From: Rhodobacterales bacterium RIFCSPHIGHO2_02_FULL_62_130
GTDB lineage: Bacteria; Pseudomonadota; Alphaproteobacteria; Rhodobacterales; Rhodobacteraceae
Direction of reading: 5' to 3'
Assembly: GCA_001828855.1 (NCBI GenBank)
Contig: MHZT01000034.1
Coordinates: forward strand, 310,001-374,000
Length of the DNA: 64,000 nucleotides
Shown: one piece after another, positions 17,009 through 63,597 of the stretch
How the letters are laid out: every line of letters starts with the position of its first letter
Numbering within the stretch: position 1 is the stretch's first letter
Notes under the pieces: generated by a model
The model's input: the letters and a program-made list of their open reading frames with translations, nothing else
The model's database searches: none
Told to the model about the DNA's origin: nothing
Made by a program: the position numbers and the translations under genes

Positions 17009-18136
17009 ATGCGCTCGGAAACCCAGAACAATGTGGATGCCATTGCCAAATCGCTGAAGCTGTTGGGGCAGCGGATGGATTGGGAAACGGCACCCCACCG
17101 TCTGGAAGAGTTCGACGCGATGATCGAACAGCCCGACCTGTGGAACGATCCGGCCAAGGCGCAAAAGCTGATGCGCGAGCGGCAGGGGCTGCTGGATCAG
17201 GTTTCGACCTACAAGCTGATCGATTCCGGGTTGCGCGACAATGTGGAACTGATCGAGTTGGGCGAGGCCGAGGGTGACGCCGAAATCGTGACCGAGGCCG
17301 AAACCGCGCTGAAGGCGTTGGTGGAACTGGCCGCCGCGAAGGAGCTTGAGGCGTTGCTGGATGGCGAGGCCGATGGCAACGACACCTTCCTTGAAATCAA
17401 CGCAGGCGCGGGCGGCACTGAATCCTGCGACTGGGCCAGCATGTTGGCGCGGATGTATGTCCGCTGGGCCGAGAAAAAGGGCTACAAGGTTGAACTGCAA
17501 TCGGAAACCGACGGGGACGAGGCGGGCATCCGCAGCGCCGCCTACAAGATTTCCGGCAAGAATGCCTATGGCTGGCTGAAATCGGAATCGGGCGTGCATC
17601 GTCTGGTCCGCATCAGCCCCTACGATTCCGCTGCGCGCCGCCATACCTCGTTCTCGTCAGTCTGGGTTTACCCGGTGGTTGACGACAATATCGAGATCGA
17701 CATTCCCGACCGCGATATCCGCATCGATACCTACCGGTCATCCGGTGCCGGTGGTCAGCACGTCAACACCACCGACTCGGCGGTGCGGATCACCCACTTG
17801 CCGACGAATATCGTGGTGACATCCTCGATGAAGTCGCAGCACCAGAACCGCGAGGCCTGTATGATCGCCCTGCGCGCACGGCTGTATCAGCTTGAGTTGG
17901 ACCGCCGCAATGCCGCCATCAACGCCCAGCACGAAAGCAAGGGTGATGCGGGCTGGGGCAACCAGATCCGCTCTTACGTGTTGCAGCCCTACCAGATGGT
18001 GAAGGATCTGCGGACGGGCGTGGAAACCTCGGACACCCAAGGCGTGCTGGATGGCGATCTGGACCGCTTTATGGCGGCAACGCTGGCGATGGACGTGGCG
18101 GGCAAAAGCCGCGCCGAGGCCAACGCCGAAGATTAA
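17009..18136 (+). CDS. prfB: Peptide chain release factor 2
   Basis: A 375-residue RF2 that releases the peptide at UGA and UAA. The peptidyl-release motif GGQ is at 248-250 and the stop-recognition tripeptide is SPY (203-205) instead of the E. coli SPF, as I recall for other alphaproteobacteria. The frame is continuous from ATG, so the programmed +1 frameshift used in many bacteria to autoregulate RF2 is absent. A 44-base run starting at the Gln codon of GGQ (17756-17799) is identical to prfA. It is the last gene of the aminotransferase-amidase-PBP1A run. Confidence 0.97.
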
Positions 18137-18223
18137 GGCCGCGCCCCGCTTTGGTGGGGCAAAAATACATCTTTTTCAAACCCGTATCCCCCGCTTAGGC
18201 TTGGCCCAAACGGGGGGAATGGA

Positions 18224-19003
18224 ATGAATACCAAAGCGGCCGACAGGCCCGAAGTGCTGCATGTCGAGTTTTCCGATCTGCGGGCGGCCCTGCGGGGGGG
18301 CTGGCGCGACTTTATCACCGCCCCGCATTACGGGCTGTTCTTTGCCTGCTTTTACGTGGTGGGCGGCTGGCTGATCTGGTGGGCCGTCACCGCCAAGGGG
18401 CAAATCTGGTGGACGCTGCCCGCCAGCGCCGGTTTCCCCATCCTTGGCCCCTTCATTGCCTGCGGCATGTATGAAATCTCGCGCCGGCTTGAGGCGGGCG
18501 AGGCGCTGGACCGGCGCCAGATATTCACCGTGATCTTCCGGCAGAAAGATCGGCAAATCCCGTCGATGGCAGCGGTGATCGTGGTGTTTTTCCTGTTCTG
18601 GAACTTCCTTGCCCATATGATTTTCGCGCTGTTTCTGGGCAATGCCACGATGACGAATGTGTCATCGTCGCTGGCGGTGTTTCTGACACCGGAGGGGTTG
18701 CTGATGCTGGCGGTCGGAACGGCGGTGGGGGCGGTGTTTGCGACGCTGCTGTTTGCGCTGACGGTGGTCAGCCTGCCGATGCTGCTGGAGCGCGAGGTGG
18801 ATTTTGTCACCGCGATGCTGACCTCATTCGCGGTTGTCACCGAAAGCCCCGTGGTGATGCTGTCATGGGGCGCATTGATCGGGGTGCTGTTGTTTGTCGG
18901 CATGTTGCCGGGGTTTCTGGGGCTGTTTGTTGTGCTGCCGCTGCTGGGCCATGCGACGTGGCATCTCTATCGCCATGCCATCGCATGGGAGTTGCCGGAG
19001 TAA
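18224..19003 (+). CDS. DUF2189 family inner-membrane protein
   Basis: A 259-residue integral membrane protein with about six hydrophobic segments (near 37-55, 62-82, 110-135, 155-185, 205-222 and 224-248). The conserved blocks LRAALRGGWRDF, GPFIACGMYEISRRLE and LPMLLEREVDFVTAMLTS are those of the DUF2189 family, whose members often sit near respiratory oxidase genes; no function is established. ATG 18224 follows GGGGGGAATGGA. A bidirectional terminator separates it from bactofilin. Confidence 0.9.
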   Translation: MNTKAADRPEVLHVEFSDLRAALRGGWRDFITAPHYGLFFACFYVVGGWLIWWAVTAKGQIWWTLPASAGFPILGPFIACGMYEISRRLEAGEALDRRQIFTVIFRQKDRQIPSMAAVIVVFFLFWNFLAHMIFALFLGNATMTNVSSSLAVFLTPEGLLMLAVGTAVGAVFATLLFALTVVSLPMLLEREVDFVTAMLTSFAVVTESPVVMLSWGALIGVLLFVGMLPGFLGLFVVLPLLGHATWHLYRHAIAWELPE

Positions 19004-19006
19004 TGC

Positions 19007-19040
19007 AAAACGGGCGCAGCCTTGCGGTTGCGCCCGTTCT
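19007..19040. terminator. Bidirectional terminator between DUF2189 and bactofilin genes
   Basis: ACGGGCGCA and TGCGCCCGT form a 9-bp perfect stem with A-run and T-containing flanks, placed between two convergent genes. Confidence 0.8.
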
Positions 19041-19058
19041 GGATGGCTGTAAAGCAGA

Positions 19059-19568
19059 TTACGCTTCGTCGGCGGCAGGCGCGGGGGCTGCCACACGCGA
19101 TTGCGCGATGGGCGCGCGGCCAACCGCAAGCGGGTCGTCCTGACGCTGCACCGAACCTTCGAAATGCGCGCCGGATTCGATGGCGATGGTCTTGTGGATG
19201 ATGTCGCCTTCGACGCGGGCGGTCGAGGTCAGACGCACTTTCAAGCCGCGCACCTTGCCGATCACGCGGCCATTGACCACGATATCGTCGGCCACGATCT
19301 CACCCCGGATGGTGGCGGTTTCGCCCACGGTCAGCAGATGCGCGCGGATGTCGCCTTCGACAGTGCCTTCCACCTGAATGTCGCCGGTGGTGCGCAGATT
19401 GCCCACCACGGTCAGGTCGGCAGACAACACCGAGGCCGCAACCTTGCCCTTGGGGGCCGAGGGGGTAAAGTCCATCGAGGGTTTGTTCACTGGGGCCTCC
19501 GGCGCCTTGGGTTTATCGGCTTCGCCGGGCTTGGCACCGGGCTCGTTGATGCGGCTCTTAGAAAACAT
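19059..19568 (-). CDS. Bactofilin (polymer-forming cytoskeletal protein)
   Basis: A 169-residue bactofilin. The central beta-helical core (about 45-140) shows the regular short repeats VVGNLRTTGDIQVEGTVEGDI, GETATIRGEIVADDIVVNG and ARVEGDII; it is flanked by Pro/Ala/Lys-rich disordered tails. Bactofilins polymerise without nucleotide and act as scaffolds for cell-wall enzymes. It overlaps the M23 peptidase gene by 11 bases (ATGTTTTCTAA carries its start and the peptidase stop), so the two are translationally coupled, the usual bactofilin-LmdC-type partnership. Confidence 0.95.
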   Translation of the reverse strand: MFSKSRINEPGAKPGEADKPKAPEAPVNKPSMDFTPSAPKGKVAASVLSADLTVVGNLRTTGDIQVEGTVEGDIRAHLLTVGETATIRGEIVADDIVVNGRVIGKVRGLKVRLTSTARVEGDIIHKTIAIESGAHFEGSVQRQDDPLAVGRAPIAQSRVAAPAPAADEA

Positions 19569-20898
19569 TTTTGGCTGCCTTTATGAAGGTCATCGGATTG
19601 ACGGCGGACCCGCCGATGCGGATCTCATAGTGAAGGTGAGTGCCGGTAGACCGGCCCGAGTTGCCCATATCACCGATCAGATCACCGCGCGACACTTTTT
19701 GTCCCACGTCAACCCTGATCTGCGCCAAATGGGCATAGCGCGTTTCGATACCGAAGGCGTGCTTGATCTTGATCAGGCGACCATAGCCGTTTTCCCAGTT
19801 GGCGTAGGTCACAACTCCGTCAGCGGTGGCATAGATCGGGCTGCCATAGGCCCCGGCAAAATCCTGCCCCTCGTGCTGCCGAAAGCCGCGCCCCATCGGA
19901 TCATTCCGGCCGCCAAAGCCCGATGTATAGCGGACAGCGGTGCGGACCGGCATGGTAAAGGGCGCCTTGAAGGCCGCGATGCGATACATGTTCATCTCGT
20001 CCAGCCCCGCCAGAATGGCGTTGGCACGAATTTCCTCGGCCGAAGGCTGCTGGCCTTTGGTGGACAGAACGATCGGAGTCAGAGGGCCGCCCTGACCGGA
20101 GTAGCCCTTGCGGACCTGATCCAACAGCGTATCCGGCGACAGGCCTGCATCTTCGAACATCTTGGACAGCGGCTCGACCGAGACGGTCAAGGCTTCTTCC
20201 AACTGGGTGAAAATCACGTCGTTGCGGGTTTCAAGCGCGCGCTTTTCGGTGGCGATCTGTTCGGCGCGTTCGGCGGCCTTTGCGGCGGCGCCTTCCATCT
20301 GGTCGCGTTCCACCGCTGTGGAGCCAAGCGCCGAGGTCAGGATTTCCAGCGTGGCGACAGTATCTTCGGCGCGACCGGCTTCGGTGTGGCTGGCCCCTGC
20401 CTGTTCGTTCAGCGCCACGGTGACGCGCGCGGCTTCGTTGCGGGCCTCGTCGCGTTCCTTGATGGTGCGGCGCAGGGTGTTCTGGATCACGTCGATGCCG
20501 GTTTCCAGCTCGCGCCGACGGTCTTCGGAACTGAGCAAGCGCGCCTGCATCTGCGCCACCTGCGCCAAGGCAAGGTTAAAGCGTTCCTGCGCGCGCACGG
20601 CCTCTTCGACCCGCAGGTCGCGGTCATCCGACAGCGCGTTCAGCCGTTCCTCATACAAGGCCTGCTGGCGCTGCACCTGTTCGCGCGATGATCCCGCCGA
20701 GATCGAATCAAGCAACAGAATCGCGGTGGCCAGCACCATCCACGCCAAGGACAGCCCGCCGACCACAACAGCCACGGCCTGCGTGGCGGGGCGCAGGCGG
20801 ATAAAGCGGGTGTCGGTATCGGACTTCAGAAACAGCCGCTGCTCGGGGAAATATCCCTCAAGCACCGTGTTGATCCGAAAGGCAAGCCGCGTCAGCAA
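19558..20898 (-). CDS. M23 family metalloendopeptidase with coiled coil
   Basis: A 446-residue envelope protein: a short cytoplasmic N-terminus, a transmembrane helix (about 40-64), a long periplasmic coiled coil (about 70-235) and a C-terminal LytM/M23 domain. Zinc ligands His342 and Asp346 (RQHEGQDFAGA), His390 (RYAHL) and His423 (HLHYE) are all present, so it should be an active peptidoglycan endopeptidase and not a degenerate EnvC-like activator. The cytoplasmic N-terminus is the part that bactofilins are known to bind in related systems. It is the first gene of the pair with bactofilin. Confidence 0.94.
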   Translation of the reverse strand: MLTRLAFRINTVLEGYFPEQRLFLKSDTDTRFIRLRPATQAVAVVVGGLSLAWMVLATAILLLDSISAGSSREQVQRQQALYEERLNALSDDRDLRVEEAVRAQERFNLALAQVAQMQARLLSSEDRRRELETGIDVIQNTLRRTIKERDEARNEAARVTVALNEQAGASHTEAGRAEDTVATLEILTSALGSTAVERDQMEGAAAKAAERAEQIATEKRALETRNDVIFTQLEEALTVSVEPLSKMFEDAGLSPDTLLDQVRKGYSGQGGPLTPIVLSTKGQQPSAEEIRANAILAGLDEMNMYRIAAFKAPFTMPVRTAVRYTSGFGGRNDPMGRGFRQHEGQDFAGAYGSPIYATADGVVTYANWENGYGRLIKIKHAFGIETRYAHLAQIRVDVGQKVSRGDLIGDMGNSGRSTGTHLHYEIRIGGSAVNPMTFIKAAKNVF

Positions 20899-21040
20899 GG
20901 GTCAGACATCCGTTCCGCATTGGGGCCGCAGTCCGGCCGTGCTGTCCTGTCGATCAGGTTGCATCTACCTAGCCAGCGGTCGTCACGCTCGCAACAAATT
21001 TGACCGGATGGTGCGGAGGGGCGGGCGGAAACCGGCCCAT

Positions 21041-21060
21041 ATCGGCAAAATCTCGCCGAT
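21041..21060 (-). terminator. Possible terminator after the DUF455 gene
   Basis: ATCGGC and GCCGAT pair around an eight-base loop just beyond the DUF455 stop codon. There is no long T-run, so strength is doubtful. Confidence 0.4.
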
Positions 21061-21074
21061 CGGGGGCAAGAGCG

Positions 21075-21926
21075 TCACGCGCTGCGGTCGGTGTCGCGAC
21101 CGGACGGTTCGACCAGAGGCCAGTAGAAATCGGGCGGCATGCCAGCGTCGGCACGCTTTTCGGTGTTGAAAGGCGGTTTCAAGCCGCCGTGGAAATAGCG
21201 CCGCACAAGGCTGTGGAACACCTCTTTGGGGTCGGTCCCGTCGCGCCCGCACAGCCAGTTGAACCATTTCGATCCATAGGCCACGTGGCTGACCTCTTCA
21301 GCATAGATCACGTTCAGCGCGGCCAGCGCCTGCGCCTCACCCGCCTTGGCGAACAATTCGATCATGCCGGGGGTGACATCCAGCCCGCGCGCCTCAAGCA
21401 CCATTGGCACCACGGCAAGGCGTCCATGCAGGTCGGCGGCGGTGTCTTCGGCGGCCTGCCACATGAAGGCATGGGCGGGCATGGCACCGTAATGGCTGCC
21501 TAGCGCTTCAAGACAATCGCAGATCAGGTTGAAATGCTTGGATTCTTCATCCGCAGCCTTCACCCAGTCGTCATAGAAGCCCATAGGCATCGGCTGATCG
21601 GTAAAGCGCGCGATGATGTCCCAGTGCAGATCAACCGCGTTCAACTCGATATGGGCCACGGCATGCAGCAGGGCGATGCGGCCCGTGGGCGATCCGGGGC
21701 GGCGGCGCGGCACCTCGCGCGGGGGCAGAAGATCGGGTTTGGCGGGGCGCGACGGGCGGTCGGGCGGGGCGCATTGGCCCACGACCAAGGGCGCACCCGC
21801 CGCCCGCGCGGCAAACCACGTGGCGGCATGGGCATGTGACAGGGCCGTTTTCGCCCGCCCGTCGGCGGTCGTCAGCACCTGCACCGCCATTTCCGCCAGC
21901 GTCAGATTTGCCAGCGTTTGCGTCAC
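21075..21926 (-). CDS. DUF455 family ferritin-like protein
   Basis: A 283-residue protein with four-helix ferritin-like character. Candidate di-metal ligands occur as paired Glu/His motifs: HAVAHIELNAVDLHWD, AADEESKHF and AEEVSHVAYG. The family is widespread and related to the MiaE/rubrerythrin-like group, but no reaction has been established that I know of. Its start overlaps the Bcp stop by four bases (ATGA), so it is co-translated with a peroxiredoxin, which suggests a link to oxidative stress. Confidence 0.9.
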   Translation of the reverse strand: MTQTLANLTLAEMAVQVLTTADGRAKTALSHAHAATWFAARAAGAPLVVGQCAPPDRPSRPAKPDLLPPREVPRRRPGSPTGRIALLHAVAHIELNAVDLHWDIIARFTDQPMPMGFYDDWVKAADEESKHFNLICDCLEALGSHYGAMPAHAFMWQAAEDTAADLHGRLAVVPMVLEARGLDVTPGMIELFAKAGEAQALAALNVIYAEEVSHVAYGSKWFNWLCGRDGTDPKEVFHSLVRRYFHGGLKPPFNTEKRADAGMPPDFYWPLVEPSGRDTDRSA

Positions 21927-22384
21927 AGCGCGCGGACCGCGGCCAGAACCTCGTCAGCGTGGCCCTTGACCGAGACCTTGTTCCACACCCGCGCCACGAC
22001 GCCTGCGCCGTCGATCAGCACGGTGGTGCGTTCGATCCCCATGTAGGTCTTGCCATACATGCTTTTCTCAAGCCACACCCCGTAATCCTCGCAGGTGCTG
22101 CCGCCTTCGTCCGAGGCCAGCACAATCGACAACCCGTGCTTTTTGCAGAACTTGTCATGCGCCTTGACGGAATCCTTCGACAGTCCGATCACGGTGGCCC
22201 CTGCGGCAGTGAAATCGGCCAGACGGGCGGTGAAATCCTGCGCCTCAAGGGTGCAGCCGGGGGTGTCGTCCTTGGGGTAGAAATACAGCACCACCTTGCC
22301 GGGCCGCAGGTCGGACAGGGTGACGGTGCCGCCGCCATCGCGGGGCAGGGTGAAATCGGGGGCGATCTGGCCTTGGGTGATCAT
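21923..22384 (-). CDS. bcp: Thioredoxin-dependent peroxiredoxin (Bcp/PrxQ)
   Basis: A 153-residue peroxiredoxin that reduces hydrogen peroxide and organic peroxides in the cytoplasm. The active site is DDTPGCTLEAQDF with peroxidatic Cys44; the Cys five residues on that serves as resolving cysteine in E. coli Bcp is Ala/Gln here, but Cys80 and Cys98 are available. YFYPKDDTPGCT and the C-terminal ERTTVLIDGAG are typical. First gene of a two-gene unit with DUF455; the upstream region is shared with the divergent AsmA-like gene. Confidence 0.95.
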   Translation of the reverse strand: MITQGQIAPDFTLPRDGGGTVTLSDLRPGKVVLYFYPKDDTPGCTLEAQDFTARLADFTAAGATVIGLSKDSVKAHDKFCKKHGLSIVLASDEGGSTCEDYGVWLEKSMYGKTYMGIERTTVLIDGAGVVARVWNKVSVKGHADEVLAAVRAL

Positions 22385-22400
22385 GGGCGGCTCCTTGCCA

Positions 22401-22454
22401 TTGTGGTCACAACCCTTTGTGATCTAGTTGCCTTCAGGCAAAGATAAAGGCAAC
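22401..22454. promoter_or_regulatory. Inverted repeats between divergent bcp and AsmA-like genes
   Basis: TTGTGGTCACAA (22401-22412) has 5-bp arms, and GTTGCCTT (22427-22434) pairs with AAGGCAAC (22447-22454). Both are within the 119-base divergent intergenic region and could be operators or leader structure. I cannot match either to a known regulator. Confidence 0.35.
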
Positions 22455-22503
22455 CCCGACAAAGGCTTTGGTCTTGGGGATCGGCCTTCGGCAAGGAGCG
22501 GGA

Positions 22504-25500
22504 ATGACGCGGCAGGACGACACCAGAGGCAGCGCGGCTATGCCGGCGACTTTGGCCGACGGGTCCGGCCCTGACAGCGTTGCATCTGCCAGCCCCAGCA
22601 AGGCCGCGCTGCGCCGCGCACGCAGGCGCAACCGCTCGGGGCTTGGGGCGCGGCTGTTCCTGCTGTTGCTGGCGGTCGTGCTGGTGGTGACGGCGATCGG
22701 GCTGTCGGGCAAGCCGATCAGCCTGCCCGTCTGGGCGGTGGCCGAGATCGAGACGCGCATCAACCGCAGCCTTGCGACCGCATTGCCGGACCAGTCGATT
22801 GCGATGGGCGGCGTCGATGTGATGCTGGACAGCGATTGGGTGCCGCGCTTGCGGCTGGAGGATGTGCGGCTGCTGAAAGCAGGCGGGCAATCCTTGGTGA
22901 CATTGCCCGATCTGCGGCTGACGCTGGATGCGGGGGCATTGCTGCGGGGCAAGGTAAGGCCGACAAGCCTGCGGCTGATCGGGGCGCGGCTGACCGTGGT
23001 GCGTGACCGCGATGGCCATTTCGATCTGTCGCTGGGGGCGGGAAAGATGCCCGCGATCACCAGCTTTGCCCAAGTGTTCAACCTTGCCGATCTGGCCTTT
23101 GCCACACCGCTTGCCGCCAGCCTGTCAACCATCGAGGCCGAGGCGCTGACCATCACCCTGCAAGACCTGCGCGCGGGCAAGACATGGGAGGTGGGTGATG
23201 GCCGCTTTGCCCTGACCAACCGGCCCGATCAGCTTGCAGCCGAGTTGGGCCTGTCCTTGGTGGCGGGCGGGGCGGCTCCGGCGCAGGCGGTGCTGACGGT
23301 GGTGTCCGACAAGGGCCGCGACACCGCGCGCCTGTCGGCCACCATCAACGGTGTGGCCGCACAGGATCTTGCCTCGCAGGTGGCAGCACTGGGCTGGCTT
23401 GGCGTGCTGGACGCGCCCATCTCGGGGCGGGTTTCGACGACGCTGGGGGCCGGCGGCGTCACAGCGATGGAGGCGCGTCTGGACATCGGCGCAGGCGCCT
23501 TGCAGCCGCAGGCCGAGGCCCGTCCCATCGCCTTTGACCGCGCCGCCATTGCGCTGACCTATGATCCGGCGCAGGGGCGGATCAAGCTGACCGATCTGTC
23601 GGTGGAAAGCCCGTCGCTGCGGGTGACGGCCTCGGGCCACAGCTATCTGGTGCGCGCCGATGGCAGCCGGATCACCGGCACTCTGGTGGGGGAACTGCCC
23701 GCCGCCTATCTGACCCAGATCAGCTTTTCGCAGGTGATGATCGACCCCGAAGGCCTGTTTCAGGAACCTGTGCGCTTTTCCTCCGGCGCGCTGGATGTGC
23801 GGATGCGGCTTGCGCCCTTTGTTCTGGACATCGGGCAGTTGTCGCTGGCCGAAGACAGCCGCCGCCTGACCGCCTCGGGCAAGATCGGGGCCGATGCCAA
23901 GGGCTGGACGGCGGCCATTGATCTGGCGCTGAACCAGATTCAAAGCGACCGGCTGCTGGCGTTGTGGCCGGTGACGCTGCGGCCCAACACGCGCGGCTGG
24001 CTGGCCAGAAACGTGCAGCAGGGCAAGATCTTTGACGTCGAGGCGGCGCTGCGGATCGAACCGGGGCAAGAGCCGCGCCTGCATCTGGGCTACAGCTTTG
24101 CCAATGCCGATGTGACCTTTCTGGCCACATTGCCGCCCGTGCAGGCAGGCTATGGCTATAGCACAATCGACGGGCCGACATATACAATGGTGCTGACCCG
24201 CGGCACGGTGGTGCCACCGCAAGGGGGGCCAATCGACATGGCAGGCTCGGTGTTCAAGGTGCCGGACATCACCCGCAAACCCGCGATGGCCGAGATCACG
24301 CTTCGCACCTCCAGCAGCCTGACGGCCGCCCTGTCCTTGTTGGACCAACCCCCGTTCCGCTTTTTGCAGAAAGCCGAGCGTCCCGTCGATCTGGGGCAGG
24401 GTGAAGCGCGGCTGGTCACGGAATTGTCGCTGCCTTTGCAAAAGAAAGTGGCGGTCAAGGATGTGACCTATTTTGCCAGTGGCACAGTCAGCAACTTCCA
24501 ATCCGATATTCTGGTGCCGGGTCGGGTGATCCGCGCCCCCAGCCTGACCGTCTCGGCAGATACCAAGGGCATGGCGATTTCGGGGCAGGGACAGATCGGG
24601 CAGGTGCCGTTCGACGTGACCTTCAGTCAGGGTTTCGGGGCCGAAGCCAATGGCAGATCCCGCATCGAGGGCAGCGTCACCCTAAGCCAGACCACTGCCG
24701 AGGAATTCGGTCTGGGCCTGCCCGCGGGCATGGTTTCGGGCGAAGGGCAGGGGCAGGTGGTGATCGAACTTGCCCGCGACGCACCGGGCAAGCTGTCTTT
24801 GGTGTCCGATCTGAACCGCATTGGCCTGTCGATCCCCGAGGTCGGTTGGTCAAAACCCGCAGCCAGCCGTGGAACCCTGCGTGCCGAAGTCAGCTTGGGT
24901 CCGGTGCCGCGCGTTGACCGGCTGGAGCTGCAGGCCGCCGGACTCGAGGCCAAAGGCTCTGTCACCATGCGCGCGGCGGGCGGGCTTGATCTGGCGCGAT
25001 TTGAACGGGTGACACTGGATGGCTGGCTGGATGGCGCGGTTGAGATCAAGGGCCGCGGTGCGGGCAAGGATGTGGCGCTGGCAGTGACGGGGGGCAGCGT
25101 CGATATGCGGCGGATGCCCGATGCCTCGGCGCGCAAATCCTCGGGGCGGGGTGGCGTGCCGATCTCATTGCGGCTGGACCGGCTGCGCGTCACCGACAGC
25201 ATCAGCTTTGACGGCTTTGCGGGCGAGTTCAGCCAGAGCGGTGGGCTGCACGGCGATTTCACCGCAAGTCTGAACGGTCAGGCCCCGCTGCGCGGCACGG
25301 TGGTGCCATCGCCCCAAGGCAGCGCGGTGCGGCTTTCGGCAAATGACGCAGGGGCCACGCTGGCGGCGGCGGGGGTGTTTTCCTCGGCGCGCGGCGGGGC
25401 GCTGGAATTGCAGCTGACCCCGCGTGATGCCAATGGCACCTATGACGGCATTGCCAAACTGACCAATATCCGCGTGAAAAACGCCTCGGTGCTGGCCGAG

Positions 25501-54568: not shown

Positions 54569-54571
54569 TGG

Positions 54572-56619: not shown

Positions 56620-56652
56620 CTGTTGAGTCCTTTTGTCGGAAATCTTGCGGCT

Positions 56653-56698
56653 GTTAAACATGAGTCTTTTAGTCAGGTCAATACCTGACTAAAAGACT
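56653..56698 (-). promoter_or_regulatory. Promoter with 16-bp perfect inverted repeat
   Basis: Arms AGTCTTTTAGTCAGGT (56663-56678) and ACCTGACTAAAAGACT (56683-56698) are exact complements around CAAT. On the minus strand TTGACC (56681-56676) in its centre and TTTAAC (56658-56653) make a promoter with a 17-base spacer. An operator covering the -35 is the simplest reading; the regulator is not identified, though an iron-responsive repressor of Rhodobacterales is plausible. Confidence 0.7.
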
Positions 56699-56719
56699 TT
56701 GGAAAATTTCCACACGGTC

Positions 56720-57559
56720 TCAGCCCTTCAAAACCGCCTTCTCCTCGGCCTTGGCGCGGTTCCACAGCGCGTCCATTTCCTCAAGATCGCTTTGGTCGGG
56801 GGTTTTACCGTCCTCTGCCAGCCAGTCCTCGATCCGGCCAAATCGGCGGGTGAATTTGGCGTTGGCGCTTCGCAGGGCGGCTTCGGGATCAACCTTCAGG
56901 TGCCGCGCAAGGTTGGCCATGACGAACATCAGATCGCCGAATTCCTCGACCACCTCGGCTTCGGTCAGGGCTTCACGGGCTTCGACAAGTTCGGCGGCTT
57001 CTTCGGCGATCTTGGCCACCACCTCATCCGTCGAAGGCCAGTCGAACCCCATACGGGCGGCGCGCTTTTGCAGCTTTACCGCGCGGGTCAGGGCGGGCAG
57101 GCCAAGCGCCACCCCGTCCAGCACCCGTGCTGGCCCGCGCTCTGCCGCCTTGATCTTTTCCCAGTCGGCGGTCTGCTGTTCGGCGGATTTGTCACGGCTG
57201 TCGGTGCCGAACACATGCGGATGCCGCGCAACCATCTTGTCGGAAATCGCCCGCACCACGGCGTCAAAGCCGAAAAGCCCCGCCTCTTCGGCCATTTGCG
57301 CGTGATAGACCACCTGCAACAGCAGATCGCCCAGTTCGGATGGCAACTCGTCCCAAGCCTTGCGCGCGATGGCATCGGCCACCTCATGCGCCTCTTCGAT
57401 CGTGTAGGGCACGATGCTGGCAAAGTCCTGCTCGATGTCCCACGGGCAGCCCGTCTGCCGGTCCCGCAGCCGCCGCATGATCTCGCGCAACCGGTCGATC
57501 CCGCCATCAGGGTCACGCACAAGTTGATCGGAGGCGGCGTCAGAATGGGGCAGGGGCAT
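56720..57559 (-). CDS. mazG: Nucleoside triphosphate pyrophosphohydrolase MazG
   Basis: A 279-residue, two-domain MazG. Each half has the all-alpha NTP-PPase pattern; in the first, RQTGCPWDIEQDF, YTIEEAHEVADAI and ELGDLLLQVVYHAQ, in the second, KIAEEAAELVEA and EEFGDLMFVMANLARH. It hydrolyses NTPs to NMP and pyrophosphate and protects against damaged nucleotides. ATG 57559 has AAGGGAACGG upstream; an in-frame ATG five codons earlier lacks a ribosome site. Confidence 0.95.
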   Translation of the reverse strand: MPLPHSDAASDQLVRDPDGGIDRLREIMRRLRDRQTGCPWDIEQDFASIVPYTIEEAHEVADAIARKAWDELPSELGDLLLQVVYHAQMAEEAGLFGFDAVVRAISDKMVARHPHVFGTDSRDKSAEQQTADWEKIKAAERGPARVLDGVALGLPALTRAVKLQKRAARMGFDWPSTDEVVAKIAEEAAELVEAREALTEAEVVEEFGDLMFVMANLARHLKVDPEAALRSANAKFTRRFGRIEDWLAEDGKTPDQSDLEEMDALWNRAKAEEKAVLKG

Positions 57560-57613
57560 TGCCGTTCCCTTCAAGATAAGATTTGATCAAAGGCAAGCAG
57601 TCAGGAGACTCCC

Positions 57614-58777
57614 ATGCCCGTTCTCAACCGTATCGCCGCTTATGCCGAAGAAATGAAGGGCTGGCGCCAGCATTTGCACGCGAATCCGGAACTCGCCTTC
57701 GAATGTCATAACACCGCCGCCTTCATCGCCGACCGCCTGCGCGAGATCGGCGTGGACGAGATTCACACCGGCATCGCCAAGACCGGTATCGTCGCGATCA
57801 TCAACGGCAGCGCCGAAGGCCCGACCATCGGCCTGCGCGCCGATATGGACGCGCTGCCGATCGAGGAAATCACCGGCAAGGACTATGCCTCGACCATCCC
57901 CGGCAAGATGCATGCCTGCGGCCATGACGGCCATGTGACCATGCTGCTGGGGGCCGCGAAATATCTGGCCGAGACGCGGCGCTTTGCGGGGCGGGTGGCG
58001 CTGCTGTTCCAACCTGCCGAGGAGGACGGCGGCGGCGGTCAGGTCATGGTGCAGGAAGGCGTCATGGACCGTTTTGACATCAAACAGGTTTACGGTATCC
58101 ACAACGCGCCCAACATCCCCTTCGGCCATTTCCAGACCACGCCGGGGGCGCTGATGGCCTCGGTCGATACGGCCTTTGTCTATATCACCGGCAAGGGCGG
58201 CCATGGCGCCACGCCGCATGATTGCGTCGATCCGGTGGTGGCGGTGGTCGGCATGGTGCAAGCCCTGCAGACCATCATCCCGCGCAATATCTATGCCTTG
58301 GATGAGGCGGTGCTGTCTGTCACGCAAATCCACACCGGCACGGCGTCGAACATCATCCCCGAAGAGGCGATGTTCTGCGCCACCATCCGTTGCTTCAAAC
58401 CCGACGTACGGGCGATGCTGAAAAAACGCTTCTACGAGATCGTCGAAGGCCATGCCGCCGCCTTCAACGTCACCGCGCGGATCGATTACGACTGGGGATA
58501 CCCTGCCACCATCAACCACCCCGACGAGGCCGCCTTTGCCACCGAAGTCGCCGCCGAGGTCGTTGGTCCCGATGCGGTCGACGGCAACTCCAACCGTGAA
58601 ATGGGGTCCGAGGATTTCTCCTACATGCTTGAGGCCCGCCCCGGTGCCTATCTCTTTATGGGAACCGGTCCCGGCGCGGGGTTGCACCACGCCGCCTTTG
58701 ACTTCAACGATGAGGCCGCCCCCGTGGGCGCGTCCTTCTTCGCCAGACTGGTCGAACGCGCGCAGCCTTTGCCGTAA
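57614..58777 (+). CDS. M20 family amidohydrolase (hippurate hydrolase/aminoacylase type)
   Basis: A 387-residue metal-dependent amidohydrolase of the M20D subfamily. Typical motifs: WRQHLHANPELAFE, GLRADMDALPI, MHACGHDGH (Cys102, His104), PAEEDGGGG (Glu136/137), GKGGHGATPH and the final GAGLHHAAFDFND. Such enzymes remove acyl groups from amino acids (aminoacylase, hippuricase). It diverges from mazG across 54 bases and is not obviously part of an operon. Confidence 0.93.
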   Translation: MPVLNRIAAYAEEMKGWRQHLHANPELAFECHNTAAFIADRLREIGVDEIHTGIAKTGIVAIINGSAEGPTIGLRADMDALPIEEITGKDYASTIPGKMHACGHDGHVTMLLGAAKYLAETRRFAGRVALLFQPAEEDGGGGQVMVQEGVMDRFDIKQVYGIHNAPNIPFGHFQTTPGALMASVDTAFVYITGKGGHGATPHDCVDPVVAVVGMVQALQTIIPRNIYALDEAVLSVTQIHTGTASNIIPEEAMFCATIRCFKPDVRAMLKKRFYEIVEGHAAAFNVTARIDYDWGYPATINHPDEAAFATEVAAEVVGPDAVDGNSNREMGSEDFSYMLEARPGAYLFMGTGPGAGLHHAAFDFNDEAAPVGASFFARLVERAQPLP

Positions 58778-58840
58778 TCTGCCGCAAGACAGCGCGCTGA
58801 ACCCGCGTTAGCATGGGTGGCACCTGACAGGAGTTCGCCC

Positions 58841-59245
58841 ATGTTCCGCGCAGCCTTTGCCCTATGCCTGCTTGCCAGCCCCGTGCTGGCAAATGAATTC
58901 GTGCAGTTCCATTCGCCCTCGGGCAATATCCACTGCGCCATCTCGACGGGCGAATGGAACAACGCGCGCTGTGATATTTTCGAATATACCCCCAGCTTTC
59001 GTATTCAGCCGAATTGGTGCGAGTTTGACTGGGGCGGTTCCTTCTCGGTCGATCTGGACAGCCGCAAGGGCGAGGTCGCCTGCGTCTCGGATACCGTCGC
59101 CAACGAGGACGGGCTAGAGCTGGACTATGGAAAAACCCTGTCCTTGGGCGGGTTTAGCTGCACCTCCGAGAAAACCGGCATGACCTGTACCAACCCCGCA
59201 GGCCACGGTTTTACCATCGCCAAGGCAAGACAGAAAATCTACTGA
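58841..59245 (+). CDS. Small secreted Cys-rich protein (DUF6636-like)
   Basis: A 134-residue protein with a signal peptide (MFRAAFALCLLASPVLA) and six cysteines in the mature part, enough for three disulfides. The pattern FHSPSGNIHCAIS ... CVSDT ... LDYGKTLSLGGFSC ... GMTCTNPAGHGFTIA resembles the DUF6636 family of small exported proteins, function unknown; the family name is from memory. ATG 58841 has CAGGAG eight bases upstream and starts the signal peptide. Confidence 0.82.
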   Translation: MFRAAFALCLLASPVLANEFVQFHSPSGNIHCAISTGEWNNARCDIFEYTPSFRIQPNWCEFDWGGSFSVDLDSRKGEVACVSDTVANEDGLELDYGKTLSLGGFSCTSEKTGMTCTNPAGHGFTIAKARQKIY

Positions 59246-59322
59246 CAGCATTTGATCAAAAATATCTGGCATTTTGGGCCGGTTTGGCTATGGTCGGGGT
59301 GGATATTGAATGGAGATTCAAA

Positions 59323-60711
59323 ATGACCGGCCTGCCCAATACCTCCGCCTTCGATCTGGATCGCGCCCATGTGCTGCACCCTTGGGCCAATTTCGGCCCG
59401 TTCGAGACCGAAGGCTCGCTGGTGATCACGCGCGGGCAGGGGGCCAAACTGTGGGATGCCGAGGGGCGGGAATATTTCGATGCGGTGGGGGGGATGTGGT
59501 GCACAAACATCGGCCTTGGCCGCCGCGAGATGGCGGATGCAATTGCCGAACAGGCCGAGAGGCTGGCCTTCTCCAATACCTTCGTCGATATGACCAACGA
59601 CCCTTCGGCGCGTCTGGCGGGCAAGCTGGCGGAACTTGCGCCCGGTGATCTGAACCGCGTGCATTTCACCACCGGAGGGTCAACGGCAGTGGATACGGCG
59701 GTGCGGGTGGTCAGCTATTACCACCATGCGCGCGGCAACCCTGACAAAACCGACATCGTTGCGCGGGAAAATTCCTACCACGGCTCGACTTACCTCACGC
59801 AATCGGTGGGCAAGCGCAACGGCGACCGGATCGAGGAGTTTCGCTACAAAACCGACGGCATCCACCACCTAAGCTGCCCCAACCCCTACCGCCGCCCCGA
59901 CTGGATGAGCGAGGCGCAGTTCTGCGATCACCTGATCGCCGAGTTCGAGGCGCTGATCGCAAAGGTCGGTGCCGACCGCATCGGCGGATTTATCGCGGAA
60001 CCGATTCAGGCCTCGGGCGGGATCATCATCCCCCCCGAAGGCTATCTGCGCCGGATGTGGGAGGTTTGCCAGCGCCACGACATTCTGTTCATCGCGGATG
60101 AGGTGGTGACCGCCTTTGGCCGCATCGGCCACTGGTTCGCCAGCCTGTCCGAATTCGGCGTGCAACCCGACATGATCACATCGGCCAAAGGCCTGACCTC
60201 CGGCTACCTGCCGCTGGGCGCGCTGATCCTGTCCGACCGGATCTGGGCCGCAATGGCGACAGGCGGTCACCGCTGGTTCACCACGGGCCTGACCTATTCC
60301 GGCCATCCGGTCTCTTGTGCCGCTGGCCTGAAGAATATCGAGATCATGGAACGCGAGGGCCTGCTGGAAAACACCACCAAGGTTGGAACCTATTTCCAGT
60401 CCCGTCTCAAGGCTTTGGAAACCCTCCCCCTCGTCGGAAACGTGCGCGGGCGTGGCCTGATGCTCTGCGTGGAAAGTGTGGCCAATCAGACCACCAAAGA
60501 GCTGCTGCCCGATTGGGTGAACGAATCCAAACGCATCTCGAACGTGGCCGAATCCCTCGGCCTGATCGTGCGGCCCATCGGCCATCTGAACGTGATGTCC
60601 CCGCCCCTGATCATCACCGAAAGCGATGTCGATTTCATCGCCGAAACACTGGAAACCGCAATCCGTCGCGTCACCGACGATCTGACGCGCGAAGGCATCC
60701 GCTTGGGCTGA
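59323..60711 (+). CDS. Class III omega-aminotransferase
   Basis: A 462-residue PLP enzyme. Asp259 (LFIADEVVTAFGRIG) and the Schiff-base Lys289 (TSAKGLTSGYLPLGAL) are present, with the phosphate loop TTGGSTAVDTAVR. Relatives act on taurine, beta-alanine or putrescine with pyruvate as acceptor. The agmatinase gene downstream suggests a role in putrescine breakdown, but a 337-base repeat region separates them. ATG 59323 has TGGAGATTC upstream. Confidence 0.9.
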   Translation: MTGLPNTSAFDLDRAHVLHPWANFGPFETEGSLVITRGQGAKLWDAEGREYFDAVGGMWCTNIGLGRREMADAIAEQAERLAFSNTFVDMTNDPSARLAGKLAELAPGDLNRVHFTTGGSTAVDTAVRVVSYYHHARGNPDKTDIVARENSYHGSTYLTQSVGKRNGDRIEEFRYKTDGIHHLSCPNPYRRPDWMSEAQFCDHLIAEFEALIAKVGADRIGGFIAEPIQASGGIIIPPEGYLRRMWEVCQRHDILFIADEVVTAFGRIGHWFASLSEFGVQPDMITSAKGLTSGYLPLGALILSDRIWAAMATGGHRWFTTGLTYSGHPVSCAAGLKNIEIMEREGLLENTTKVGTYFQSRLKALETLPLVGNVRGRGLMLCVESVANQTTKELLPDWVNESKRISNVAESLGLIVRPIGHLNVMSPPLIITESDVDFIAETLETAIRRVTDDLTREGIRLG

Positions 60712-60721
60712 CCCCGCGAAG

Positions 60722-60747
60722 GGTGCGTGCAAAGCACGCCACCCTAC
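60722..60747 (-). repeat. REP-like palindrome after the aminotransferase
   Basis: On the minus strand GTAG is followed by GGTGGCGTGCTTTGCACGCACC, a stem of 8 bp with one bulged G. Confidence 0.75.
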
Positions 60748-60803
60748 CCTTCGGGGCGACACATGCGCCCGGCTCCAAGGGTCTGCGCCTGCCAAAGCGC
60801 GGG

Positions 60804-60876
60804 GCCTCCGGCGGGAGTATTTGGGCCAAGATGAAGCCGCGCGTTTCATCTTGGCGCAAATACTCCCCGCGGAGCG
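60804..60876. repeat. Inverted pair of box elements
   Basis: Plus copy 60804-60835 (identical to 10999-11030) and minus copy 60845-60876, 9 bases apart, with the CCAAGATGAA ends facing each other. This is the opposite arrangement to the pairs at 35254 and 54486, where the GC-rich ends face. Confidence 0.85.
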
Positions 60877-60914
60877 CCCCGCAGGTCCACCCCGCAACCC
60901 GTTCTGGATAGGGG

Positions 60915-60938
60915 GTAGGGTGCGTGATTTCACGCACC
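60915..60938 (+). repeat. REP-like palindrome upstream of agmatinase
   Basis: GTAG, then GGTGCGTGA and TCACGCACC with loop TT; the exact reverse complement of the element at the end of queA. Confidence 0.8.
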
Positions 60939-61048
60939 GCACGGCTTGACAGGATTGCTGCGGTCGCGTCCTTTAGCAGCACCGGATCCGCGCGTCTCCG
61001 GCCCGCTTACGGGAAAAAGACGTCAGCGTGAAAATCCCCGAGAATTCC

Positions 61049-62014
61049 ATGGCCCTAGAAGATGCCAAATCCGAAGTCGATACCGCTTTCACCCGCAAAG
61101 GCCTGCGCGGCTATGCGTTCGAGAACGCTTTTGCCGGTGCCACCTCATTCCTGCGCCGCACCTATACCAAGGACCTGACCGGCGTTGATCTGGCTATCAC
61201 CGGCGTGGCCTTTGATCAGGCGGTGACGCACCGCACCGGCACGCGCTTTGGCCCCCGCGCCATCCGCGAGGCTTCCAGCCTGCAGCCCTATGATCCGCCC
61301 TATGGCTGGCCCACCAACCCGCTTGAGGACATGTCTGTCATCGACTACGGCGATCTGGCGTTCGACTATGCCAAGACTGCAGATTTCCCCGAAACCCTGA
61401 CCGCCCATATCCGCCACATCCTGTCGGCGGGGGCAGGCACTGTCACCCTTGGCGGTGATCACTACATCACCTTTCCGATCCTCAAGGCCTATGCCGAGAA
61501 ATTTGGCCCGCTTGGCGTGATCCATTTCGACGCCCATTCGGACCTCTGGCCCGATGACGATCTGACCCGCATCGACCACGGCACCATGATGTACAAGGCG
61601 GTCAAGCAAGGCTATGTCGATCCCAAACGCTCGGTCCAGATCGGCATCCGCACCACGACCGAGGATTATCTCGGCGTCCATGTCATCGACGCGCGCGAGG
61701 TGCATGAGAATGGCACCGCCGCCGCTGTCGCCAAGGCCAAGGATATTGTGGGCGATCAGCCGACCTATCTGACCTTCGACATCGACGCACTGGATCCGTC
61801 GGTAGCCCCCGGCACCGGCACGCCGGTCTGGGGTGGCCTTCATTCCTGGCAAGCCGCCGCCATGCTGCGTGATCTGGCTGGCATCAACATGGTCGGCGGC
61901 GATATTGTCGAGGTCTCGCCCCCCTATGACACCACAGGGGCCACCGCCATCGCAGGCGCGCATGTCGCCTATGAGCTGATCTGCCTCTACCACTGGGCCA
62001 AGACCCAACGATGA
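61049..62014 (+). CDS. speB: Agmatinase
   Basis: A 321-residue ureohydrolase that converts agmatine to putrescine and urea. The binuclear manganese ligands are in GGDHYITFP, HFDAHSDLW and TFDIDALDPSVAPGTGTPVWGG (in pieces: DIDALDPS), as expected. I chose ATG 61049, giving MALEDAKSEVDTAF, the usual start in Rhodobacterales; a GTG seven codons earlier is possible. The following DUF1499 gene overlaps by four bases. Confidence 0.93.
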   Translation: MALEDAKSEVDTAFTRKGLRGYAFENAFAGATSFLRRTYTKDLTGVDLAITGVAFDQAVTHRTGTRFGPRAIREASSLQPYDPPYGWPTNPLEDMSVIDYGDLAFDYAKTADFPETLTAHIRHILSAGAGTVTLGGDHYITFPILKAYAEKFGPLGVIHFDAHSDLWPDDDLTRIDHGTMMYKAVKQGYVDPKRSVQIGIRTTTEDYLGVHVIDAREVHENGTAAAVAKAKDIVGDQPTYLTFDIDALDPSVAPGTGTPVWGGLHSWQAAAMLRDLAGINMVGGDIVEVSPPYDTTGATAIAGAHVAYELICLYHWAKTQR

Positions 62015-62433
62015 TGAAACCCATAAGCCTCGCCGTCCTGATCGCTTTGGCGGGGCTTATGGCCTATGTCCGGTTTGCCCCCGTCACCGCCGCCCTGTGG
62101 CATATCGATCTGACCAGCCGCCCCGCGCCCGTGACAACGCCCAGCCCCGATAGGGTCACGCAGCTGCGAAACGGAGCCTATACCGACACCACCGCTTCGC
62201 TCGCCAGAATTGACGCCGTCGCCCTTGCCACCCCGCGCACCCGCCGTATCGCCGGTACTTCCGCCGAGGGTCGCATCACCTATGAAACCCGCAGCCTGAT
62301 CTGGGGCTTTCCTGATTACACCACCGCGCAATCCACGCCCCAAGGCACCCTGATCTTCGCCCGCCAGCGCTTTGGCGGCAATGACTGGGGCGTCAACGCC
62401 GCCCGCCTGCGCGACTGGTTGGCCAAGCTCTGA
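62011..62433 (+). CDS. DUF1499 family membrane-anchored protein
   Basis: A 140-residue protein with one N-terminal hydrophobic helix (about 5-22) and a periplasmic DUF1499 domain. Hallmarks are TPRTRRIAGTSAEGRITYETRSLIWGFPDYTT (in pieces: YETRSLIWGFPDY) and the C-terminal LIFARQRFGGNDWGVNAARLRDWL. Function unknown; the family is common in alphaproteobacteria. The start overlaps the agmatinase stop (ATGA), so it is translated with speB. Confidence 0.9.
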   Translation: MMKPISLAVLIALAGLMAYVRFAPVTAALWHIDLTSRPAPVTTPSPDRVTQLRNGAYTDTTASLARIDAVALATPRTRRIAGTSAEGRITYETRSLIWGFPDYTTAQSTPQGTLIFARQRFGGNDWGVNAARLRDWLAKL

Positions 62434-62445
62434 CCGCTTCCCCCG

Positions 62446-62495
62446 ATCCTCTTCGCAAAAATATCCTCGGGGGTCCGGGGGGAGAAGCCCCCCGG
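62446..62495 (-). repeat. Hairpin plus box element between DUF1499 gene and prfA
   Basis: Read on the minus strand, an 8-bp hairpin CCGGGGGG/CCCCCCGG (62475-62495) is followed by the box CCCCCGAGGATATTTTTGC...GAAGAGGAT (62446-62474). The box is identical to that after lpdA over its last 29 bases, but points away from the next gene. Confidence 0.8.
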
Positions 62496-62541
62496 CGGCA
62501 GCCCCTTGACCAACCCTTCGCAATTCTTCAAACCCGCGCGC

Positions 62542-63597
62542 ATGGTTCCGTTAGAAAAACTCGCCCAGATCACCCAGCGTTTCGAGTTTCTCGAAGCCAA
62601 GCTCAATGCCGGTGCATCGCCCGCTGAAATCGCCACGCTCAGCCGTGAATATTCCGATCTGAAGCCCGTGGCCGATGAAATCGCCGCCTATCGCCGCGCG
62701 CTGGATGATCTGGCCGAGGCCGAGATTATGCTGGCCGATCCGGAAATGCGAAGCTTGGCCGAGGATGAACTGCCCGCCCTCAAGGCTCGCATCCCTGAGA
62801 TGGAGGCACGGCTGCAACTGGCGCTCTTGCCGAAAGACGCGGCTGATGCGCGCCCTGCGATCCTTGAAATCCGCCCCGGCACCGGTGGCGATGAGGCGGC
62901 TCTGTTCGCGGCAGACCTGTTGCGGATGTATCAGCGCTATGCCGAGAAAATGGGCTGGAGCTTTGAAATCCTTGAACAACAAGACAGCGAGCTTGGCGGG
63001 ATCAAGGACGTCTCTGTCCATATCCAAGGTGAAGGCGTCTTTGCGAAACTGAAATTCGAATCCGGCGTTCATCGCGTGCAGCGCGTGCCGGAAACCGAGG
63101 CTCAGGGACGCGTGCATACCTCTGCCGCTACTGTGGCCGTTCTGCCCGAGGCGGAAGAGGTTGATCTGCAAATCCCCGCCTCTGACATCCGCATTGATAC
63201 CATGCGCGCGTCAGGGGCAGGGGGGCAGCACGTCAACACCACCGACTCGGCGGTGCGGATCACCCACTTACCGACAGGCATCATCGTGACATCGGCGCAG
63301 AAATCGCAGCACCGCAACCGCGAGATGGCGATGCAAGTGCTGCGCGCACGGCTGTATGATCTGGAGCGCGCCCGTGTTGATGACGCCCGCGCGGCGGACC
63401 GCAAGGCGCAGGTCGGCTCGGGCGATCGGTCGGAACGCATCCGCACCTATAACTTCCCGCAAGGCCGCATGACCGACCACCGCATCAACCTGACGCTCTA
63501 TTCTTTGGGCCAAGTGATGCAGGGCGATCTGGGCGAGGTGATCGACGCGCTGGTGGCCCACGATCAAGCCACCAAGCTGGCCGAGATGGAAGGATGA
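62542..63597 (+). CDS. prfA: Peptide chain release factor 1
   Basis: A 351-residue RF1 that releases the peptide at UAG and UAA. The GGQ motif is at 227-229 and the stop-recognition tripeptide PxT reads PET (183-185; E. coli has PAT). ATG 62542, giving [21 protein letters not shown], is the usual start although no clear ribosome site is seen; a TTG twelve codons earlier is possible. From the Gln codon of GGQ, 44 bases (63226-63269) are identical to prfB. It overlaps prmC by four bases. Confidence 0.96.

What the first reader, a model, noticed from the sequence alone, without database searches (positions are those of the whole stretch)
17756..63370. Forty-four identical bases in prfA and prfB starting at the GGQ glutamine: gene conversion?
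Seen: prfB 17756-17799 and prfA 63226-63269 match at every base, third codon positions included, for about 15 codons; after one mismatch five more bases match. The leucine codon at the end is TTG in one and TTA in the other, both rare in this GC-rich genome where CTG is standard, and further on both use ACA for Thr and share CTGCGCGCACGGCTGTAT. Known: RF1 and RF2 are ancient paralogues that share this peptide but need not share codons. Inference: a recent or recurrent conversion event copied the catalytic GGQ-domain segment from one gene to the other, 45 kb apart.
Basis: partly seen in the sequence, partly recalled or inferred. Interest (0 to 1): 0.7.

Follow-up and report, generated by a model that had tools for sequence, protein, structure and literature searches.

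The report
Release-factor genes once shared a segment
The 44 identical letters in the two translation-termination genes are mostly what an identical protein stretch plus shared codon preferences would give, but a few codons further on the genomes of this bacterial family examined here carry the same rare one-codon deletion in both genes, which points to an ancient copying of part of one gene into the other.

Summary
In detail: prfB 17756-17799 and prfA 63226-63269 match at 44 of 44 bases. Recent conversion is not needed to explain it. Among 102 family genomes, prfA-prfB runs of 44 or more occur in 2 of 102 same-genome pairs and 5 of 204 nearest-relative pairs. The 42-base core is the commonest prfB string at this site (9 of 102). 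A GENECONV-like silent-site test gives global p 0.36. A tail of near-identical pairs (8 of 102) keeps some recent conversion possible. All readable Rhodobacteraceae RF1 (102 of 102) and RF2 (101 of 101) examined share a one-codon deletion and a TSSEKSQH-like loop; so do 79 of 79 RF2 from other database records. Other alphaproteobacteria have it in some RF1 (2 of 53; 21 of 30 in one order) but in no RF2 examined (0 of 56; 0 of 30). Best reading: RF1-to-RF2 conversion of part of domain 3 in the family's ancestor, a third case of a kind published for Bacteroidia and Chloroflexi (PMC4530459). Trees favour it without rejecting the alternative.

The parts
17009..18136 (+). prfB, peptide chain release factor 2 (375 aa)
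   Evidence: ORF; TIGR00020 490 bits against a cut-off of 370
62542..63597 (+). prfA, peptide chain release factor 1 (351 aa from the ATG; the mechanical ORF starts at 62506)
   Evidence: ORF; TIGR00019 484 bits against a cut-off of 423
17756..17799 (+). 44-nt tract identical to prfA 63226-63269, starting at the Gln codon of GGQ
63226..63269 (+). 44-nt tract identical to prfB 17756-17799
17819..17842 (+). prfB loop TSSMKSQH with the one-codon deletion (placed after the first T) that is otherwise an RF1 character
   Evidence: coordinates counted from the Gln codon at 17756
63289..63312 (+). prfA loop TSAQKSQH with the same one-codon deletion
   Evidence: coordinates counted from the Gln codon at 63226
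17768..17833 (+). inferred ancestrally converted segment of prfB (codons +4 to +25 after the GGQ Gln; outer limits about 17735-17854)
   Evidence: RF1-like residues T at +4, TSS and K at +25, with RF2-like residues outside; boundaries inferred
17870..17887 (+). second shared block CTGCGCGCACGGCTGTAT (also at 63340-63357)
   Evidence: genus variants
17767..17818 (+). possible mRNA hairpin covering the synonymously conserved stretch of prfB (weak, mainly genus-level)
   Evidence: not kept in P. ferrugineus; no covariation at its two wobble-wobble pairs

Best explanation
There are two layers. (1) In the ancestor of Rhodobacteraceae a piece of RF1 (prfA) coding for part of domain 3, at least codons +21 to +25 and probably +4 to +25 after the GGQ glutamine, was copied over the matching piece of RF2 (prfB). 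This gave both proteins the same shortened loop (TSSEKSQH type) and helped make the peptide [14 protein letters not shown] identical in both; that domain does the same job in both factors (PMC4530459). (2) The 44 identical bases in this genome are the later product of that identical peptide plus codon preferences shared by site and by clade, not of a recent copying event. Shown: the shared deletion and its distribution, and the similar frequency of long runs in nearest-relative pairs. Inferred: the copying event itself, its direction and its boundaries, and the cause of the codon preferences.
For: Layer 1. The deletion is in RF1 102 of 102 and RF2 101 of 101 readable Rhodobacteraceae genomes (one further RF2, G008, ends at a contig end and reads IVVTSS), and in 79 of 79 RF2 of the records. 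It is in RF2 of 0 of 56 genomes of other alphaproteobacterial families and 0 of 30 genomes of G211's order. It is in RF1 of 2 of 53 genomes of other families (G205, G211, both with IVVTSSEKSQH) and 21 of 30 of that order, G211 counted in both. RF1 and RF2 tract peptides are identical in 88 of 102 Rhodobacteraceae but 2 of 53 other genomes. Rhodobacteraceae RF2 is closer to its own RF1 than to other RF2 in 7 of 29 windows, all between -18 and +45 codons. On 48 aligned columns the best RF1-to-RF2 tree is 14.7 log units better than the RF1|RF2 split and 31.3 better than RF2-to-RF1. Layer 2.
Against: The AU test does not reject the RF1|RF2 split (p 0.14 and 0.22; 0.26). In fast searches with 38 sequences the split had p 0.091 over -10 to +36 and 0.039 over 0 to +36; a narrower conversion tree (Rhodobacteraceae RF1 and RF2 alone as a clade) was 3.7 units worse than the split over the first segment and 8.2 better over the second. 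A parametric bootstrap with fast searches was uninformative: 41 of 60 simulations reached the observed value, which was itself negative. Searches were incomplete: an unconstrained search ended below a constrained one. The converted piece may be as short as five codons. Within G211's order the RF1 deletion is patchy (f62 0 of 8, f61 3 of 4), so its history in RF1 is not simple. Against layer 2: same-genome pairs with 13 or 14 of 14 equal codons are 8 of 102, against 6 of 204 nearest-relative pairs, 1.64 expected after matching and 0.74-1.57 in the codon model (P at most 0.0001); matches are clumped in the tract (dispersion 1.79 against 1.14 for cross pairs; 14 genomes in the upper tail against 5.4, p 0.0013).
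Confidence: 0.75

Rival explanations
1. Recent prfB-to-prfA conversion in this lineage copied the 44-base tract.
For: This genome's prfA is the only 1 of 102 prfA with the exact 42-mer that is commonest in prfB. Pairwise silent-site p is 0.006, and with all polymorphic sites this pair is significant globally. At Ser, Ala, His and Pro (+7, +8, +13, +15) it carries the commonest genus prfB codon, which fewer than half of the genus prfA carry (TCG 4, GCG 5, CAC 5, CCG 2 of 12, this genome included).
Against: Same-genome runs of 44 or more: 2 of 102; nearest-relative pairs 5 of 204. Silent-site global p 0.36, with three cross pairs (G004A-G005B, G000A-G009B, G000A-G003B) having lower pairwise p; in the all-sites version this prfA is as significant with the prfB of other genomes. 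All four GAGG wobble bases just upstream differ, and prfA-specific residues remain on both sides. The genes are only 52% identical, the only other run of 12 or more being 18, so there is little homology for recombination (recalled argument).
Confidence: 0.12
2. The deletion and the TSSEK loop arose independently in RF2 of Rhodobacteraceae by convergence under selection (for example to fit a changed ribosome or the methylase of the GGQ glutamine).
For: The AU test does not reject the RF1|RF2 split; the loop is short; deletion-bearing RF1 shows that the loop tolerates shortening.
Against: No RF2 examined outside the family has the deletion (0 of 56 and 0 of 30), so it is rare. The same position, the same length and the same residues as in the RF1 of the same genomes would all have to recur, and the tract peptide became identical as well (88 of 102 against 2 of 53).
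Confidence: 0.15
3. Conversion in domain 3 has continued at a low rate across the family up to the present.
For: Same-genome synonymous identity exceeds that with the three nearest relatives by 0.0165 +/- 0.0062 per codon in -57 to +75 (0.0263 +/- 0.0085 in -57 to -1) but by 0.003 +/- 0.0076 in the N-terminal part. Overdispersion and a heavy tail in the tract. G170 shares a rare GTT in both genes, also has a 44-base run, and its own pair is globally significant in the all-sites test.
Against: Much of the excess is shared with nearest relatives, hence clade codon preference; in the tract itself the remainder is 0.0175 +/- 0.0126. Runs of 36 or more are 5 of 102 within and 8 of 204 in nearest-relative pairs. 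In the silent-site test G170's pair has global p 0.40.
Confidence: 0.25
4. The prfB tract is held by selection on an mRNA hairpin in this genus, and prfA matched it by chance.
For: Genus prfB synonymous identity in the tract is 0.84 against 0.60 over the gene, and the best 14-codon window is unusual (p 0.0006). Folding z is -1.75 to -2.99 in 12 of 12 genus prfB against synonymous shuffles, the lowest of 60 windows in 11 genomes; Rhodobacter capsulatus has z -2.43 and -1.93.
Against: Pseudorhodobacter ferrugineus prfB does not keep it (z -0.39). In 90 other genera the mean z there is only -0.47 to -0.72, and the two wobble-wobble pairs of the stem show no covariation. The genus sequences are related by descent, so their z values are not independent.
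Confidence: 0.1

Closest known systems
RF1-RF2 gene conversion of domain 3 in Bacteroidia and Chloroflexi (Ishikawa, Kamikawa and Inagaki 2015, PMC4530459; seen: outline with abstract, part 1 of 2 of Results and Discussion, and passages)
   Same: Same gene pair, same domain around GGQ, a lineage-specific length change shared by both paralogues, and the rest of each gene kept in its own family. Direction RF1-to-RF2 as in their Chloroflexi case.
   Different: Another lineage (Rhodobacteraceae; 'alphaproteobacteria' and 'Rhodobacter' have 0 occurrences in that paper's main text), a one-codon deletion instead of a longer motif, a shorter probable segment, and weaker tree support here.
tufA/tufB conversion (Salmonella, PMC5485169; wider concerted evolution, PMC6053082; passages seen in both)
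   Same: Non-reciprocal copying between translation-factor paralogues on one chromosome.
   Different: tufA and tufB are 1185 nt long with 12 differences; prfA and prfB are 52% identical, and no recent event is shown here.
Codon choice selected at conserved sites for translational accuracy (recalled concept; seen as a search listing with abstract starts only)
   Same: Invariant residues use preferred codons, so paralogues with the same peptide share codons.
   Different: Here only the pattern is shown; selection for accuracy was not tested.

Membership tests
RF1-RF2 domain-3 conversion (kind of Ishikawa 2015) | Derived length change and motif shared by both paralogues of one clade and absent from RF2 elsewhere | tested here: met
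   RF1 102/102, RF2 101/101 readable; RF2 of other alphaproteobacterial families 0/56 and of G211's order 0/30; RF2 beyond Alphaproteobacteria not surveyed
RF1-RF2 domain-3 conversion (kind of Ishikawa 2015) | Located in domain 3 next to GGQ, rest of the gene in its own paralogue family | tested here: met
   Window identities; HMM scores; that this is domain 3 is taken from PMC4530459 and the GGQ position
RF1-RF2 domain-3 conversion (kind of Ishikawa 2015) | Likelihood test on the segment rejects the RF1|RF2 split | tested here: inconclusive
   Delta lnL +14.7 for RF1-to-RF2 but AU p 0.14 and 0.22 for the split, 0.26; 0.091 and 0.039 in two fast analyses; parametric bootstrap uninformative
RF1-RF2 domain-3 conversion (kind of Ishikawa 2015) | Direction can be polarised | tested here: met
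   Motif in RF1 but not in RF2 of G205 and of G211's order; tree RF2-to-RF1 31.3 log units worse than the best, AU p 0.051
Recent gene conversion of the 44-nt tract | Longer identical silent stretch within the genome than expected after correction for all pairs | tested here: not met
   Silent sites: global p 0.36, pairwise 0.006. With all polymorphic sites the pair passes, but so does this prfA with the prfB of six other genomes
Recent gene conversion of the 44-nt tract | Same-genome identity exceeds identity with nearest relatives | tested here: inconclusive
   Runs of 44 or more 2/102 against 5/204, and tract excess 0.0175 +/- 0.0126 speak against; 13 or more of 14 codons 8/102 against 6/204 speaks for
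RF1 and RF2 | NCBIfam models above cut-off | tested here: met

The most novel reading that the evidence does not exclude
Domain 3 of RF1 and RF2 behaves as one shared module in alphaproteobacteria: an ancestral RF1-to-RF2 transfer in Rhodobacteraceae, possibly an earlier RF2-to-RF1 transfer of the [10 protein letters not shown] half in the neighbouring order, and occasional short conversions that continue today, of which the 44-base tract here and the one in G170 are examples.
Probability: 0.2. Interest if true: 0.7.

Novelty: new member of a known kind. Interest (0 to 1): 0.45.

Why it matters
RF1 and RF2 are commonly treated as ancient paralogues that evolve apart. A third lineage with exchange in the catalytic domain would support the 2015 proposal that this domain is interchangeable and that exchanges are overlooked. 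It would warn against reading RF trees, or RF1/RF2 co-evolution, from domain 3, and it gives a clean one-codon marker for the transfer that any genome collection can check. The codon part is a caution: long identical DNA runs between old paralogues can arise from an identical peptide and shared codon preference.

Tried and rejected
Recent conversion from codon statistics: overall codon usage made the tract look extreme (6e-6), but site-specific and nearest-relative comparisons removed most of that, not the tail of 13-of-14 pairs. A permutation of pairings was significant inside and outside the tract alike, in the genus and in the other genera, so it largely measures genome codon usage. A region-by-region model with fitted strength of genome preference still left a larger excess in the GGQ domain than in the N-terminal part; nearest relatives account for much of it.

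RNA hairpin in prfB: pursued and left as a weak rival.

Fast tree searches were too noisy for a parametric bootstrap. One search failed (key error); searches ran into the time limit, 77 with no output and 79 after three likelihoods.

Rows dropped before counts: of 109 genomes with both genes, 7 of other families (G013-G019) were left out of the 102 pairs; G006, G012 and G020 lacked a mate. Of 149 family genomes searched, 90 of other genera were read with both genes; the rest were not fetched because of caps. Of the 15 genomes of the genus, 12 had both genes. G008 was left out of the GENECONV-like test and of the folds (prfB cut by a contig end). The other-family sets (53 RF1, 56 RF2) are nearly all one genome per family; G020 and G171 share a family. 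For G211's order, 30 RF1 and 30 RF2 were read out of 41 genomes searched in each, not all from the same genomes.

Literature: searches listed no report of this exchange in Rhodobacterales; only the open-licence library was searched.
Full report
Observation. The 44-base identity is real and in the stated places. prfB is 17009-18136 and prfA 62542-63597, each over its NCBIfam cut-off. Over 1038 aligned bases the two genes are 52% identical, and the only runs of 12 or more are this one (44) and the 18-base block at 17870/63340. Among the 80 records kept the prfB best matched is that of Pseudorhodobacter ferrugineus (89% identical protein); records very near the window may be left out there.

Relatives. 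I aligned prfA and prfB codon by codon in 102 genomes of the family: 12 of the genus and 90 other genera, out of 149 family genomes searched. Each tract codon is the commonest or a common codon at its site in both genes. In the genus the prfB tract is nearly frozen at synonymous sites (0.83 pairwise identity against 0.59 outside), while the prfA tract is not (0.62 against 0.59).

Is it conversion of the tract? Same-genome pairs share 14 of 14 tract codons in 1 of 102; cross-genome pairs do in 13 of 10302, and 8 of those 13 involve this genome's prfA with the prfB of another genome, four of them from other genera. Against nearest relatives only, runs of 44 or more are 2 of 102 within and 5 of 204 across; runs of 36 or more are 5 of 102 and 8 of 204; runs of 30 or more are 11 of 102 and 14 of 204. 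The exact 42-mer is the commonest prfB string (9 of 102), is found in 4 of 79 prfB (P. ferrugineus, two Rhodobacter capsulatus, a Leisingera), and among 102 prfA only here. A GENECONV-like permutation on silent codons for 11 genomes of the genus gives p 0.006 for this pair and 0.36 globally; three cross pairs have lower pairwise p. With all polymorphic sites this pair is significant globally, but so is this prfA with the prfB of six other genomes (G001, G002, G003, G004, G009, G170), which suggests that a shared string, not a private copy, drives the result; G170's own pair is significant there as well.

What speaks for some recent conversion. Pairs with 13 or 14 of 14 codons equal are 8 of 102 within, against 6 of 204 nearest-relative pairs, 1.64 expected from pairs matched for overall similarity and 0.74-1.57 in a model of site preference and own codon usage (P at most 0.0001). 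Matches are overdispersed in the tract (1.79 against 1.14; 14 genomes in the upper tail against 5.4). With own codon usage estimated outside each region and its strength fitted, the same-genome excess over cross pairs is 0.046-0.061 per codon in the three regions from -57 to +75, against 0.027 in the N-terminal and 0.025 in the C-terminal part. Much of this is shared with nearest relatives. What remains over the three nearest is 0.0165 +/- 0.0062 per codon in the domain, 0.0263 +/- 0.0085 in -57 to -1, 0.0175 +/- 0.0126 in the tract and 0.003 +/- 0.0076 in the N-terminal part. I count this as a hint of continuing conversion, not as evidence for this tract.

The older event. About seven codons after the tract both proteins of this genome have a shortened loop (RF2 [14 protein letters not shown]1 [12 protein letters not shown]). 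The deletion is in 102 of 102 RF1 and 101 of 101 readable RF2 of the family, and in 79 of 79 RF2 of the records. In genomes of other alphaproteobacterial families it is in 2 of 53 RF1 and 0 of 56 RF2. In the order of one of those two (G211) it is in 21 of 30 RF1, G211 included, and 0 of 30 RF2. These 30 and 30 are what was read out of 41 genomes searched in each call. All 41 genomes sampled from the window's order belong to its own family. The motif is thus an RF1 character shared with other lineages and, in the RF2 examined, found only in Rhodobacteraceae. That points to a transfer from RF1 to RF2 on the stem of the family. RF2 residue +4 fits: T in 94 of 102 Rhodobacteraceae RF2 and in 9 of 56 other RF2.

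Extent. Rhodobacteraceae RF2 is closer to its own RF1 than to RF2 of other families in 7 of 29 windows, all between -18 and +45 (16 Rhodobacteraceae and 51 other genomes). RF2 has Y or F at -8 in 88 of 90 other genera and 12 of 12 of the genus, and the RF1-like Met in 2 of 90; it is RF2-like again from about +33. So the transferred piece probably lies within about -7 to +32 and includes at least +21 to +25.

Tree test. With 62 sequences and 48 columns, the best tree with Rhodobacteraceae RF2 among RF1 is 14.7 log units better than the RF1|RF2 split and 31.3 better than the reverse direction. The AU test rejects neither at 0.05 (split 0.14 and 0.22 for two searches; reverse 0.051); the split had 0.26 and a reverse tree from a fast search 0.02. 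In fast analyses of 38 sequences the split had 0.091 over -10 to +36 and 0.039 over 0 to +36, while a narrower conversion tree was 3.7 units worse than the split in the first and 8.2 better in the second. A bootstrap with fast searches was not informative, and searches were incomplete. The case therefore rests on the indel and its distribution, not on the tree.

Comparison with what is known. RF1-RF2 conversion of nearly all of domain 3 is published for Bacteroidia (RF2 to RF1) and Chloroflexi (RF1 to RF2), with shared length motifs as the first clue, and the authors suspected that further cases were overlooked (PMC4530459; outline with abstract, part 1 of its Results and Discussion, and passages seen). 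In that paper's main text 'alphaproteobacteria' and 'Rhodobacter' do not occur. Searches listed no paper on this exchange in this lineage. I file the finding as a new member of that kind, with the likelihood criterion inconclusive.

Side lead. The synonymously conserved stretch of prfB folds well in 12 of 12 genus sequences tested (z -1.75 to -2.99), and the window just there is the lowest of 60. Rhodobacter capsulatus keeps it (z -2.43, -1.93), P. ferrugineus does not (-0.39); in 90 other genera the mean z is only -0.47 to -0.72, and the two wobble-wobble pairs show no covariation. I do not rely on it.

One membership row (same-genome against nearest-relative identity) was changed from not met to inconclusive because the 13-of-14 tail speaks for conversion.

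Noticed in passing
window 4003-4079 and 4112-4188: Two tRNA-Asp (gtc) genes in tandem, inside an 83-nt identical direct repeat; ordinary.
   Followed up: yes
window 10999-11030, and copies starting 13051, 27119 and 60804: A 32-nt sequence present four times on the + strand (CCTCCGGCGGGAGTATTTGGGCC type); function not studied.
   Followed up: no
loci L458-L487 (RF1 of the order of G211): RF1 there comes in two types: GPGGQSVNTT without the loop deletion and GAGGQHVN(K/T)T with it; the K form is RF2-like, possibly a further exchange in the other direction or a retained old state.
   Followed up: partly
prfB of two of the 90 other genera read: Two RF2 have the RF1-like Met at -8 instead of Tyr or Phe; they could mark further exchange and were not looked at.
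   Followed up: no
prfA and prfB of G000, G001, G004, G005, G007, G009; G078: The two genes lie about 45-51 kb apart on one contig in six genus genomes, and under 2 kb apart in G078 of another genus.
   Followed up: no
window 17870-17887 and 63340-63357: The LRARLY block is identical in both genes with the rare Ala codon GCA; same-genome 6 of 6 codons equal in 1 of 102 genomes, this one; RF2 of sister species varies K/R and A/S at this place.
   Followed up: partly
Rhodobacter capsulatus prfB (L259, L267): 63 bases from the GGQ Gln are identical to this genome's prfB (21 of 21 codons), while other synonymous codons agree at 63-66%.
   Followed up: partly
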